Origin: a virus
Strand: one strand, 5' to 3'
IMG/VR virus record: IMGVR_UViG_3300035698_001300
Coordinates: 1-20,945 of that record
Length of the DNA: 20,945 bases
This document shows positions 7,939 through 20,734 of the stretch, in pieces. The stretch's first letter is position 1, and each line of letters opens with the position of its first letter. Position numbers and translations under genes: made by a program. The notes under the pieces were generated by a model, which did no database searches, was not told the origin of the DNA, and saw only the letters and a list, made by a program, of their open reading frames with translations.

Positions 7939-7962
7939 TACTATATAAATAACATTATTTTA
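7939..7962 (-). promoter_or_regulatory. Archaeal-type promoter upstream of tail terminator operon
   Basis: On the minus strand the block reads AATAATGTTATT followed by TATATAGTA. It includes a TTTATATA TATA box about 25 nt before a probable start near 7920, and the ATG lies at 7891 behind a GGGAGG site. The 24 bases are identical to the block before the portal gene and nearly so before the protease gene and the noncoding RNA. AATAA-TG-TTATT forms a 12-bp inverted repeat over the BRE position and could be an operator. Confidence 0.75.
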
Positions 7963-15156: not shown

Positions 15157-15177
15157 AGTATATAAATAACATTATTC
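15157..15177 (-). promoter_or_regulatory. Archaeal-type promoter before protease/capsid genes
   Basis: Minus strand GAATAATGTTATTTATATAC, a third version of the structural-gene promoter block. The upstream gene's stop (15172-15174) is embedded in it. The TATA box lies about 25 nt before a start near 15138, well ahead of the preferred protease ATG at 15088. Contains the AATAA-TG-TTATT inverted repeat. Confidence 0.7.
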
Positions 15178-17054: not shown

Positions 17055-18431
17055 TTATTCTTCCACGAAATTCTTGATTAACTTCTGATACAGCTTTTTA
17101 GTATCTTCATCTTCCTGTTTCTTCTTATCCTTCTCAGGTTTAGGGTTAGGTATTTTAGGATCCTTTTTGTCTAAAGGGTTATCTCCTGGCATATTAACAT
17201 CGAAACTAGAAGACTGTTTAACGTGTTCGTCTCCACCTTCAACTGGATCTAATCCTTCAATAGCTCGGACTTCATTAATGCTAAGTACGCCATCTTTAAG
17301 TTTGCCCATCATCTGGTCGAACTCTATCTTTTCTTTTACATTGTCCTTTATAGACCATCTAAATTCTAAGTTATCGTGTTCAAGGATTTCGTTAATTATT
17401 TCTTGGTTAATTTTATCCTTAATTAAATTCAAGTAAGGTAACACAGCATTTTTTATAGATACTCTTTCCTGACTGTCACCTGTAGATCTATTAGAATTTT
17501 CATAGAAACCTACTTCTTGTGGACTTAATCCGTAAGCTGCAAAGACTAAATGGAAATACCACTTTTGTCCTTCTAACCATTCCATATCTTTATTGTTAGT
17601 TCTGATCTGTTCAAATTTAGCTTCAGAATTATGGAAAGCTAGTTTATGTGGTTTACCTTTAATTTCAGTATTCCAAGATTGCTTAAACCTTTCTAATCCG
17701 TCTCCGTCTGTATTAAGGGAGATAATTCCGTCAGGTATTGCATTATTTTGAAAGAACTCTTTATTATAACGAGTAGACTGTATCATTAACTCTACTTCTT
17801 GTACTATAGACTGAAGTGGACTGAATCCGTAAGGGTAATATTCATTGTTAGGGTTCATCTTACCATACAAAACATCACATTTAGGGAAAAACTTAGGTCC
17901 ATTACGAGGATGTCTAAAACTGTACTGAAAAAATCCGTCTACTATTCCGTTCTTGTCTATTTCATATAAAAATCTAAAACCATCGTAAGAAAATAACTCA
18001 ACTATTTCTCCGCTTATGTTACGACCTTTGAATATAACTCCACAATCTCCATCTAATAAATCGTCTACGAAAGGGATCCATACTTCCCAAAAAGTATCTC
18101 CGTTTCGGTTAGGTTGTTGGAGTAAAGTTTTAATTTTTTTAATATCTTCAGAGTAATCTGTTTGGTCTTCTTCATCTACTTTAACTATATCCCAAGGAGA
18201 GTTCATTATCTGTTTTTTAATAGAATTTTTAACCATTTGTACCCAAGAAGACTTAGCGTATTGTCTTAACTCAACTACATTAACTCTACGAGGCATACCA
18301 AATTTAGCGTGCCAAAACCAGTTATACTTAAGTGGCATATTAGTTTCAGCCACAGTCTCTGCTCCATTGAACGCTCTAATGTCCTTAGACAGAAAAGACC
18401 GTATATCTTTAATTGTTTGTAAAAATCCCAT
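17055..18431 (-). CDS. Portal protein
   Basis: 458 aa, ATG 18431, downstream of a promoter block (18485-18508) with GAGGT 12 nt before the start. Standard features of the phage portal family: early strand and helix (VVELRQYAKSSWVQMVKNSI), SPWDIVKVDEEDQ, the wing core DDLLDGDCGVIFKGRN, a long central helix with IQSTRYNKEFFQNNAIPDG ('....n.f.n.a.p.G.i'), the stem-near EVGFYENSNRSTGDSQERVS and the crown-near SINEVRAIEGLDPVEGGDEH ('..NE.R...gl.p..ggd'). The last 50 residues are charged. It forms the dodecameric DNA entry and exit ring at one vertex. Call firm by motif and position after terminase. Confidence 0.9.
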   Translation of the reverse strand: MGFLQTIKDIRSFLSKDIRAFNGAETVAETNMPLKYNWFWHAKFGMPRRVNVVELRQYAKSSWVQMVKNSIKKQIMNSPWDIVKVDEEDQTDYSEDIKKIKTLLQQPNRNGDTFWEVWIPFVDDLLDGDCGVIFKGRNISGEIVELFSYDGFRFLYEIDKNGIVDGFFQYSFRHPRNGPKFFPKCDVLYGKMNPNNEYYPYGFSPLQSIVQEVELMIQSTRYNKEFFQNNAIPDGIISLNTDGDGLERFKQSWNTEIKGKPHKLAFHNSEAKFEQIRTNNKDMEWLEGQKWYFHLVFAAYGLSPQEVGFYENSNRSTGDSQERVSIKNAVLPYLNLIKDKINQEIINEILEHDNLEFRWSIKDNVKEKIEFDQMMGKLKDGVLSINEVRAIEGLDPVEGGDEHVKQSSSFDVNMPGDNPLDKKDPKIPNPKPEKDKKKQEDEDTKKLYQKLIKNFVEE

Positions 18432-18484: not shown

Positions 18485-18508
18485 TACTATATAAATAACA
18501 TTATTTTA
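18485..18508 (-). promoter_or_regulatory. Archaeal-type promoter before portal gene
   Basis: Identical over 24 bases to the block at 7939-7962: AATAATGTTATT followed by TATATAGTA on the minus strand. TATA centre lies about 25 nt before a probable start near 18465, with the portal ATG at 18431. It also marks the 3' border of the noncoding RNA region. Confidence 0.75.
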
Positions 18509-18519
18509 ACAATTAATTT

Positions 18520-19165
18520 TCCGACTTAGTGGGTTACTCTTGGTTTTCACGAACTCTTGCTTCAGGTCTTTTAAGACGTCCACAAGACAATTTCACCGTA
18601 ACCTGTTTCGCCAGTACTAGGTTGACTACTAGTGGTATGACCTTTCCAAACTACACAGCACCAACACTGGGGTAGGTATTGCTACCTAATTGGAGACTGC
18701 AGGACTTTCGATAATGTGAGAATAGTTTCATATTCTCATCTCAGCAACTTTTTTAACAATGCATCCGCTGAATGATTAATTACACCAACATTATTTCGAA
18801 CCTGCAACGTTACCGTACCACACTGCCTTAGTAACGAGCAAACAGTGTTGCTCCGACGAGCTATACTCTGCGGCTTTCCTCTCCGCCCTAGTCTCCATTG
18901 ATTTTAAACAGGAAGAGGGGGGATTTGCACCCTCAACAAGTTCACCTTATAGTCAGTCACCTTGCTTTTTGATTAAGTCTGTCTATAACGCTCCTCTCAA
19001 ATACACGGAAACACCGCAATCTCTTCCCTTGATTCACGCCCCTGAACAACTAATACTGCATCGTGATATAGTCATCGTTTATTTGGAACCAGTGCTTCGG
19101 TTAGTAGTATTTCAACATCCCCCAAATCAGGTTTAGCGATTATTTTATTTTACTTCTTTTCAAAT
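18520..19165 (-). ncRNA. Large structured noncoding RNA between terminase and portal
   Basis: No reading frame of note on either strand across 18432-19199. By hand count, 18541-19140 has 259 G/C in 600 (43%), richer than the genes around. A promoter copy lies at 19185-19206. Minus-strand pairs I checked base by base: TAGGTA-GCAA-TACCTA (18688-18673, GNRA tetraloop); TGAGAATA-TGAAAC-TATTCTCA (18738-18717); TGGAGACT (18897-18890) with AGTCTCCA (18698-18691); TGCAGG+TTCGA+TAATGT (18806-18788) with ACATTA+TCGAA+CCTGCA (18717-18698), two short bulges; GAGCAA/TTGCTC (18853-18836); CGTTAC/GTAACG (18836-18808); GGTTAC (18603-18598) with GTAACC (18537-18532). Boundaries are approximate: the 5' end from the promoter, the 3' end before the portal promoter. 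Context and size suggest an ornate viral RNA of the ROOL/GOLLD kind; class not assigned. An intron, tRNA or rRNA is not supported. Confidence 0.8.
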
Positions 19166-19184: not shown

Positions 19185-19206
19185 TACTAATAAATAACAT
19201 TATTTA
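19185..19206 (-). promoter_or_regulatory. Promoter for the noncoding RNA
   Basis: Minus strand AAATAATGTTATTTATTAG, the structural-gene promoter block with one base missing in the TATA part (TTTATTAG in place of TTTATATAG). Predicted start is near 19165. The stop of the 41-aa gene lies inside it. The altered TATA suggests a strength different from the other three copies. Confidence 0.65.
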
Positions 19207-19325
19207 GGGAATATTTTAATACCTAACACTTTCTCTAATCTTCTTAATATATCAAATGTATCTTTTTGTTTTTTAACTATTTGTTTATCTAAACTTGAAG
19301 GTATTATCCATTGTTTATTTTCCAT
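19200..19325 (-). CDS. Leaderless small protein, 41 aa
   Basis: ATG 19325 to TAA 19200-19202, giving MENKQWIIPSSLDKQIVKKQ then a basic helix ending EKVLGIKIFPK. Start chosen because it ends the 33-bp leaderless promoter block (TATA centre 25 nt upstream). One helical segment with positive charges (DTFDILRRLEKVLG), maybe a winged or ribbon-like DNA or RNA binder, but no family is recognised. It lies between terminase and the noncoding RNA. The separate promoter suggests a role apart from packaging. Confidence 0.6.
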   Translation of the reverse strand: MENKQWIIPSSLDKQIVKKQKDTFDILRRLEKVLGIKIFPK

Positions 19326-19355
19326 ACAATTAAACAACACTAACTAATATATAAA
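19323..19355 (-). promoter_or_regulatory. Leaderless promoter, copy 2 of a 33-bp repeat
   Basis: TTTATATATTAGTTAGTGTT followed by GTTTAATTGT and ATG on the minus strand; differs from the copy at 8511-8543 at one position (C for T on the plus strand). TATA box 25 nt before the ATG, so the transcript should begin at the start codon. Lies between the terminase stop and the 41-aa gene. Confidence 0.7.
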
Positions 19356-19360
19356 TGTTC

Positions 19361-20734
19361 TTAACCAAAGAAGAAACCTAGTTCTTTGTTACCTTTCCAG
19401 ATAAAATAAACTAAAGCGTCAGCGAAATCAGGAGATTTTTCTTCAGGATCAATTATTTTAACCTTACCACTAAGACTAGTGTCCCATTTCATATTCATTA
19501 ATTCAGTCCGTAGTTTAGTGTGGTTAGGCATATCAATATCGCCCTCACGCATAATATCTGCTAACCTGAAAAACTGCTCAGCCTTCTTATTCTGAAAACG
19601 CTTTTTAGATCCTGTAGGTTTATCCTTATCATATTTGTTAATAGAACTTGGTGACTCGCCATAATGACAAGCGTGTACTTTAACTCCTGGTAATAGTTGT
19701 TTTACTCTAGAAACTACTCCACTACCTAAACCGATACAGTCTATATTAATATCATCAGCACCTTTGTCTTTGTAAATGGTTTGTATTCTCTCTGCGATGT
19801 TCATTAAGTCACTCTTAGGTTCGGAAAATATATATTCTAGTTTATATCTTCCATCAAGTTCATAACCCCACATTATTACAGTTAAGTCTCTTCCTTTCTC
19901 TGAAACGTCACAGGAGATAATTTTTCTACCTTTACTCTCAAATTCACTCTTAGTAGCTGTCTCAATCCAGTCAAACATAATAAGAGAGTCATCAGCGTCT
20001 TTAGGGAAATTGCTTTTATAAAGTACAGTAAATTCTATGGGAGTTAATTCTGCTCTAACCTCATCTACGAAAGTCTGAGTTATCCTGCCTTCTTCTAAAG
20101 CTATCTCGTAACCTATATGTATCACATCAAACCTTCCACTTACGTAATGGTCATAGTATTTGTTATCCCTGTTCCAAGGGTTAGCTAATTCAATAAGTAT
20201 AGAGTTCTCTGGATCATCTCCCAACATCCTAATTATCTTAGCGTAAGCTGGTCTGGAAATTAAAGCTGCCTCGTCACAAATAATAAGGTTAGCACCGAAA
20301 CCCATTAGTCTGTTAGCTTCTCCGTGAGCAGAGATAGTCCTAAGTTCACATCCGTTACTGAAAGTCCATCTCTTTCTACTAGCTTCACGTTTTAATCGAT
20401 CTATAGAATTGTCAACTGCTATATCTACTAGGTTAGCAAGTCTAGGACAAGAAACAATAAGTTCAGCTATATAGTTACGAATAATTGTACTCTGGTCATC
20501 TTGAGGTGCAATAATAGCCACCTTCTTATTCTTATGTAAGTAAATGTAAAGAGCAACACCAACTGCTACACAGAAAGACTTTCCGTATCTAGTCATAGCG
20601 TTTATACAAGCTCTCTTACTTTCAGTAAAGGCAATTAGTCTAATTATTCTTATCTGAGTAAGAGTCAAGTCCTTATCGAATAGGAATTTAACCAAAGCTC
20701 TTACGTTTTTTGTTCTGACTAATTCTTCTAACAT
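19361..20734 (-). CDS. terL: Large terminase subunit (ATPase and nuclease)
   Basis: 457 aa, ATG 20734. The N-terminal ATPase has a deviant Walker A, AMTRYGKS at residues 46-53, Walker B LIICDE at 150-155 and a coupling segment ELANPW at 182-187. The C-terminal RNase H-type nuclease has acidic ligands at D276 (IISCDVSEKGRDLTVIMWG), D332 (DINIDCIGLGSGVVSRV) and the final pair D436/D439 (PDFADALVYFIW). It pumps viral DNA into proheads through the portal and cuts the concatemer. The gene lies upstream of the portal, separated by the 41-aa gene and the noncoding RNA. Its start overlaps the HNH remnant by 47 nt. Function firm on motifs. Confidence 0.93.
   Translation of the reverse strand: MLEELVRTKNVRALVKFLFDKDLTLTQIRIIRLIAFTESKRACINAMTRYGKSFCVAVGVALYIYLHKNKKVAIIAPQDDQSTIIRNYIAELIVSCPRLANLVDIAVDNSIDRLKREASRKRWTFSNGCELRTISAHGEANRLMGFGANLIICDEAALISRPAYAKIIRMLGDDPENSILIELANPWNRDNKYYDHYVSGRFDVIHIGYEIALEEGRITQTFVDEVRAELTPIEFTVLYKSNFPKDADDSLIMFDWIETATKSEFESKGRKIISCDVSEKGRDLTVIMWGYELDGRYKLEYIFSEPKSDLMNIAERIQTIYKDKGADDINIDCIGLGSGVVSRVKQLLPGVKVHACHYGESPSSINKYDKDKPTGSKKRFQNKKAEQFFRLADIMREGDIDMPNHTKLRTELMNMKWDTSLSGKVKIIDPEEKSPDFADALVYFIWKGNKELGFFFG

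What the first reader, a model, noticed from the sequence alone, without database searches (positions are those of the whole stretch)
18520..19165. Large structured noncoding RNA of about 0.6 kb between terminase and portal
A stretch with no gene of note, 43% GC by hand count in an AT-rich genome, its own promoter and many complementary segments: a GNRA-capped hairpin, an 8-bp hairpin with a 6-nt loop, an 8-bp closing stem of a multibranch junction (18897-18890 with 18698-18691) and a 17-bp bulged stem. Ornate phage RNAs of similar size (ROOL, GOLLD) are known, and recent structural work shows them forming homo-oligomers. I do not recognise this RNA as either one. In an archaeal virus it could be a new class, and its place beside the packaging genes allows a role in packaging or capsid content (inference).
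Basis: partly seen in the sequence, partly recalled or inferred. Interest (0 to 1): 0.95.

Follow-up and report, generated by a model that had tools for sequence, protein, structure and literature searches.

The report
Viral tRNA-like RNAs, one intron-split
A non-coding stretch of an uncultured archaeal tailed virus, taken for a giant ornate RNA, instead appears to hold two back-to-back tRNA-like pieces, the second interrupted by an archaeal-type intron that host tRNA-splicing enzymes could remove; what the virus uses them for is unknown.

Summary
The stretch 18512-19165 (minus strand) is a real non-coding insertion between terminase and portal. It has raised G+C, a copy of the virus's own promoter, and no protein or Rfam match. 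Read as one 0.6-kb ornate RNA it is not supported: whole-region folding energy equals shuffled sequence (z about 0) and long perfect stems are at chance.

What stands out is narrower. Its T loop holds a 90-nt insert in bulge-helix-bulge geometry. Cutting as archaeal splicing endonuclease would restores GCAGG-UUCGAAU-CCUGC, identical over 18-21 nt to T arms of tRNAs in host-phylum genomes. A phage-like contig binned in a DPANN genome carries an uninterrupted homologue with one compensatory acceptor change. Just upstream (18910-19027) lies a second acceptor plus T-arm element.

Neither element has canonical D or anticodon arms, so they are tRNA-like, not shown to be translating tRNAs. Only this virus of more than 40 examined carries the insertion. 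Function is inferred: host tRNA enzymes process a tRNA mimic. New variant of a known kind; interest moderate.

The parts
18512..19165 (-). non-coding RNA gene (predicted transcript; ends approximate)
   Evidence: no ORF or protein-family match, raised G+C, promoter at 19204-19187 (32)
19187..19204 (-). promoter of the RNA (imperfect copy of the virus's AATAATGTTATTTATATA motif)
   Evidence: start of transcription near 19165 inferred from archaeal TATA spacing
18488..18505 (-). portal promoter, exact copy of the same motif; with 19205-19182 it forms a near-identical direct repeat flanking the RNA
18910..19027 (-). tRNA-like element 1: acceptor GGAAGAG (19027-19021) / CUCUUCC (18917-18911), T-arm-like GAGGG-UGCAAAU-CCCCC (18934-18918)
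   Evidence: only such pair in the 20.9-kb window, 9 of 2000 shuffled regions; 83% over 42 nt to the 3' end plus trailer of a DPANN tRNA-Ser (56, 58, 59); stem probability 0.94 (66)
18897..18910 (-). spacer UGUUUAAAAUCAAU, identical to the trailer after a host-phylum tRNA-Ser
18691..18896 (-). tRNA-like element 2 including its intron: acceptor GGAGACU (18896-18890) / AGUCUCC (18698-18692), discriminator A 18691
   Evidence: homologue L138:1429-1525 (72, 76, 94, 97, 108)
18870..18886 (-). D-like hairpin GCGG-AGAGGAAAG-CCGC (non-canonical)
   Evidence: AGAGGAA also in L138 (97)
18699..18805 (-). T arm GCAGG-UUCGAA | intron | U-CCUGC
18705..18794 (-). predicted 90-nt archaeal bulge-helix-bulge intron in the T loop (after position 59)
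   Evidence: top-scoring BHB of the region; excision raises tRNA-profile match from E 0.0038 to 1.8e-6 (86)
18717..18738 (-). 8-bp hairpin with 6-nt loop, inside the intron
18673..18688 (-). GNRA-capped hairpin after element 2
   Evidence: probability 0.94

Best explanation
The stretch is a virus-specific non-coding RNA gene, inserted as a promoter-flanked cassette at the terminase-portal junction. Its transcript carries two consecutive tRNA-like elements, each made of an acceptor stem stacked on a T arm. The second is interrupted in the T loop by a 90-nt archaeal (bulge-helix-bulge) intron. Likely path: the host polymerase transcribes from the promoter at 19204-19187 (promoter motif shown, use inferred); host RNase P and RNase Z trim the elements at the acceptor stems (inferred from the substrate rule acceptor plus T arm); host tRNA-splicing endonuclease cuts the bulges and ligation restores a normal T arm (geometry and product shown in sequence, splicing inferred). 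The bodies lack canonical D and anticodon arms, so the products most likely act as tRNA mimics or decoys for host tRNA-handling or tRNA-targeting enzymes, or as processing signals that release the flanking RNA, rather than as decoding tRNAs (inferred).
For: Element 2: 7 Watson-Crick acceptor pairs lie directly against a T arm whose loop holds the top-scoring BHB of the region. The joint motif is unique in the window and occurs in 9 of 4000 shuffled regions. Splicing at the canonical BHB cuts raises the tRNA-profile match from E 0.0038 to 1.8e-6 and gives 18-21 nt exact identity to T arms in DPANN genomes (40 of 371 have a match at E <= 0.01, mostly T-arm matches at 95-100%), which in the fetched loci are called tRNAs, chiefly tRNA-Asn (72, 74, 75). 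A phage-like contig in a DPANN MAG (L138/L150) carries the uninterrupted counterpart: same leader and GGAGAC, AGAGGAA loop and 3' end, with U-A to G-C at acceptor pair 7; a pattern search for the shared 5' part hit only it in 371 genomes. Element 1: 9 of 2000 shuffles, similarity to a DPANN tRNA-Ser 3' end and trailer. Promoter: 32, 21. Non-coding: 2, 54, 55. Insertion unique at this junction: 23, 49, 65, 110.
Against: No canonical D and anticodon arms were recovered, with or without further introns, beyond shuffled controls. ARAGORN and Rfam tRNA models do not call either element. Element 1 has UGC instead of UUC in its T loop and an A-C mismatch in the T stem. Only one homologue of element 2 is known, and one compensatory change is weak (control reached in 263 of 500 shuffles). 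The 5' bulge of the BHB is 2 nt unless A18794 is left unpaired. The tRNA reading was found after the fact. About 300 nt of the stretch (19165-19028 and 18690-18512) remain unexplained.
Confidence: 0.5

Rival explanations
1. An ordinary cluster of virus-encoded tRNA genes with several non-canonical introns each, whose D and anticodon exons were not resolved here.
For: Archaeal tRNA genes can hold up to three introns, some removable only after another (PMC8450103); relative L002 carries two normal tRNA genes in the late operon; T-loop splicing restores a normal T arm.
Against: With one free deletion, or with one or two BHB-constrained introns, the best cloverleaf scores fall within shuffled controls and below real host tRNAs (8.9 constrained and 14.8 unconstrained against about 20). 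U8 is missing in both elements and in L138. The uninterrupted homologue L138 also lacks a canonical cloverleaf.
Confidence: 0.2
2. A large ornate RNA of the ROOL/GOLLD type, in which tRNA-like domains are embedded in a bigger fold.
For: Size, virus late-gene context, raised G+C and own promoter; GOLLD linkers sometimes carry tRNAs (PMC12286853); predicted leader-trailer helices.
Against: No Rfam match even at E 10; whole-region fold z about 0; leader-trailer pairing z -0.95; no relatives for covariation.
Confidence: 0.1
3. A decaying or foreign non-coding insertion (for example tRNA pseudogene debris) without RNA function.
For: Present in one virus only; the junction also holds cargo in relatives (methylase remnant in L039, a 190-aa ORF in L123); non-canonical bodies.
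Against: Intact 7-bp acceptors, intact T stem and BHB, a promoter copy, and a homologue in another contig with a compensatory change.
Confidence: 0.2

Closest known systems
Archaeal tRNA genes with non-canonical bulge-helix-bulge introns
   Same: BHB geometry with both bulges 3' of the central 4-bp helix; excision restores the T loop; acceptor stem adjacent to the T stem
   Different: no canonical D or anticodon arm found; carried by a virus; A instead of U at position 8
tmRNA and other tRNA-like structures
   Same: acceptor plus T arm with a degenerate rest; L150 gives a weak sub-threshold tmRNA hit (19.5 bits, cutoff 47)
   Different: no tag reading frame shown, no tmRNA match in the window, and archaea are not known to use tmRNA (own knowledge)
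GOLLD and ROOL phage RNAs
   Same: several hundred nucleotides, virus-encoded, unknown function; GOLLD may carry tRNAs in its linker (PMC12286853)
   Different: no sequence or covariance-model match; no global fold signal

Membership tests
ROOL / GOLLD | match to the Rfam covariance model | tested here: not met
   none, even at E 10
ROOL / GOLLD | whole RNA folds better than shuffled sequence | tested here: not met
   z about 0; leader-trailer pairing not significant
ROOL / GOLLD | covariation across relatives | tested here: inconclusive
   no relatives of the whole RNA found
ROOL / GOLLD | homo-oligomeric cage | not testable with these tools
   needs purified RNA and cryo-EM
canonical tRNA | 7-bp acceptor stem next to a 5-bp T stem with UUCRANN loop | tested here: met
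   element 2 after splicing; element 1 only with a UGCAAAU loop (42)
canonical tRNA | D arm and 7-nt anticodon loop with U33 | tested here: not met
   not above shuffled controls
canonical tRNA | match to tRNA models | tested here: not met
archaeal BHB intron | two bulges, each 3' of the central 4-bp helix, with outer and inner helices | tested here: met
   (top score 15.0; best of 40 shuffles 14.5); one bulge is 2 nt unless A18794 is unpaired
archaeal BHB intron | excision restores a known mature sequence | tested here: met
archaeal BHB intron | spliced RNA observed | not testable with these tools
   no RNA data
self-splicing group I / II intron, RNase P RNA | Rfam match | tested here: not met

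The most novel reading that the evidence does not exclude
A new class of archaeal-virus RNA: tandem tRNA mimics without decoding arms, whose mature form is made only after the host's tRNA-splicing endonuclease removes a T-loop intron, serving as decoys or guides against tRNA-centred host functions.
Probability: 0.2. Interest if true: 0.75.

Novelty: new variant of a known kind. Interest (0 to 1): 0.5.

Why it matters
If the splice and processing steps are real, a probable DPANN-archaeal virus encodes tRNA-like RNAs that depend on host tRNA splicing, a dependency I did not find described in the papers searched. It also shows how intron-split tRNA-like genes can pass for 'ornate' non-coding RNAs and escape standard tRNA finders.

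Tried and rejected
Known RNA families (nothing); decayed protein gene (six-frame Pfam and PHROG scans, 54, 55: nothing); a self-splicing intron or RNase P (no Rfam match); nucleotide relatives in phages, plasmids, viral pattern scans and about 130 loci (none; the 18-mer hit L022, in an ARAGORN-called tRNA-Glu, is probably a coincidence, 27, 28, 31); att site for integration (no identical tRNA 3' end in 371 DPANN genomes, 56, and no integrase recognised in the window); canonical tRNA with an anticodon-loop or single free intron (not above controls); leader-trailer closing helix (not significant). Weak E-values against L106, L023 and L024 are low-complexity or coding matches.

Full report
WHERE IT IS. 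The window is a 20,945-bp virus record with the head and tail genes of a tailed virus on the minus strand. The capsid protein's nearest named relative is haloarchaeal HHTV-2; the terminase's hits include haloarchaeal HGTV-1 among bacterial phages; the only capsid relative found in the collection of 84,980 species genomes is in a Woesearchaeota MAG. An archaeal, probably DPANN, host is therefore likely but not proven. The stretch lies between terminase (19361-20734) and portal (17055-18431).

THE OBSERVATION. The stretch is non-coding and richer in G+C than its surroundings. Among 41 intergenic gaps of 200 nt or more in this virus and relatives, the gap that holds it (929 nt as delimited there, G+C 35.6%) is the longest and one of few not poorer in G+C than its genome; the mean difference is -5 points. 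It has a promoter: AATAATGTTATTTATATA occurs exactly before three gene starts and with 3 mismatches at 19204-19187 (32); the same motif occurs in relative L006 (21). The copies before the RNA and before portal form a near-identical direct repeat about 700 bp apart, which suggests the RNA arrived as a promoter-flanked cassette (inference).

NOT ONE BIG FOLD. The whole stretch folds no better than dinucleotide shuffles (z 0.08 and 0.16). Perfect stems of 8 bp or more number 3 against 1.8 expected. The 5' and 3' thirds do not pair beyond chance. No Rfam family of interest matches even at E 10. The one domain with a signal is 18897-18691.

WHAT THE DOMAIN IS. Its closing helix GGAGACU/AGUCUCC plus A is an acceptor stem with discriminator base. 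Directly inside lies GCAGG-UUCGAA...U-CCUGC, a T arm whose loop is opened by a 90-nt insert. The insert junction has the archaeal bulge-helix-bulge form: outer helix GCAGG/CCUGC, central helix UUCG/CGAA, a bulge after the central helix on each strand (AA or AAA; AGU), inner helix UAAUGU/ACAUUA (69, 70). Cutting after the second bulge base on each side gives UUCGAAU, a normal 7-nt T loop. The spliced form matches a profile built from 25 tRNAs at E 1.8e-6 against 0.0038 unspliced. It is identical over 18-21 nt to T arms in genomes of the host phylum (40 of 371 genomes have a match), which in the fetched loci are called tRNA-Asn, -Ser and -Arg (74, 75). T arm plus BHB plus acceptor occurs once in the window and in 9 of 4000 shuffled regions.

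A RELATIVE. The best hit of the spliced form is in L138/L150, a 3.9-kb contig of short overlapping ORFs in a DPANN MAG. It reads GGAGACG...AGAGGAA...GCAGG-UUCGAAU-CCUGC-CGUCUCC without an intron. It shares the leader, acceptor, AGAGGAA loop and 3' end with the window and changes acceptor pair 7 from U-A to G-C. A pattern for the shared 5' part finds only this contig in 371 genomes. Its body is not a canonical cloverleaf either.

THE FIRST ELEMENT. Fourteen bases upstream, GGAAGAG/CUCUUCC closes a 117-nt element ending in a T-arm-like hairpin (9 of 2000 shuffles). Its 3' end and following spacer match a DPANN tRNA-Ser and its trailer, 83% over 42 nt (56, 58, 59). Its T loop (UGCAAAU) and one T-stem mismatch are irregular.

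LIMITS. Neither element yields D and anticodon arms above shuffled controls with one free deletion or with BHB-constrained introns, so they are called tRNA-like here. The remaining 300 nt are unexplained. The element is missing from 44 related viral records, and terminase and portal are adjacent or nearly so in most relatives. Splicing, processing and function are inferred from known enzyme rules; non-canonical and multiple introns in archaeal tRNAs are documented (PMC8450103; PMC4090602).

FUNCTION. The most likely use is as tRNA mimic or as RNase P/Z processing signal. Codon supply would need a resolvable anticodon, which was not found. A packaging role is unsupported.

Noticed in passing
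L166:2490-2530 (Streptococcus phage Javan117), L167 (phage LF1): Streptococcus phages share an unannotated acceptor plus T-arm minihelix (TGAGACG-TATGGA-GCAGGTTCGAATCCTGC-CGTCTCA in Javan117) in a non-coding gap, with no D or anticodon arm and no tRNA or Rfam call; 46 Streptococcus phage records matched.
   Followed up: partly
L124:493-740: A relative of this virus has a G+C-raised non-coding stretch that starts with an acceptor/T-arm-like minihelix (AGTGAGA...GAATG-TTCAAAT-CATTC-TCTCACT) followed by long stems; minihelices of this kind also occur by chance in shuffled controls.
   Followed up: partly
window 7942-7959, 15159-15176, 18488-18505: Three exact copies of a virus promoter AATAATGTTATTTATATA, 35-57 nt before start codons.
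   Followed up: partly
L039:6180-6690, L123:1791-2363, window 18512-19165: The terminase-portal junction is a cargo site: cytosine-methylase-like remnant in L039, a 190-aa ORF in L123, the RNA here.
   Followed up: no
L002:2308-4671, L003:4483-6924, L132, L133: Terminase genes of several relatives are interrupted by inserts; in L002 the Pfam Hint domain indicates an intein.
   Followed up: no
window 19201-19328, minus: A possible 41-aa gene (MENKQWIIPSSLDKQ...) between terminase and the RNA promoter.
   Followed up: no
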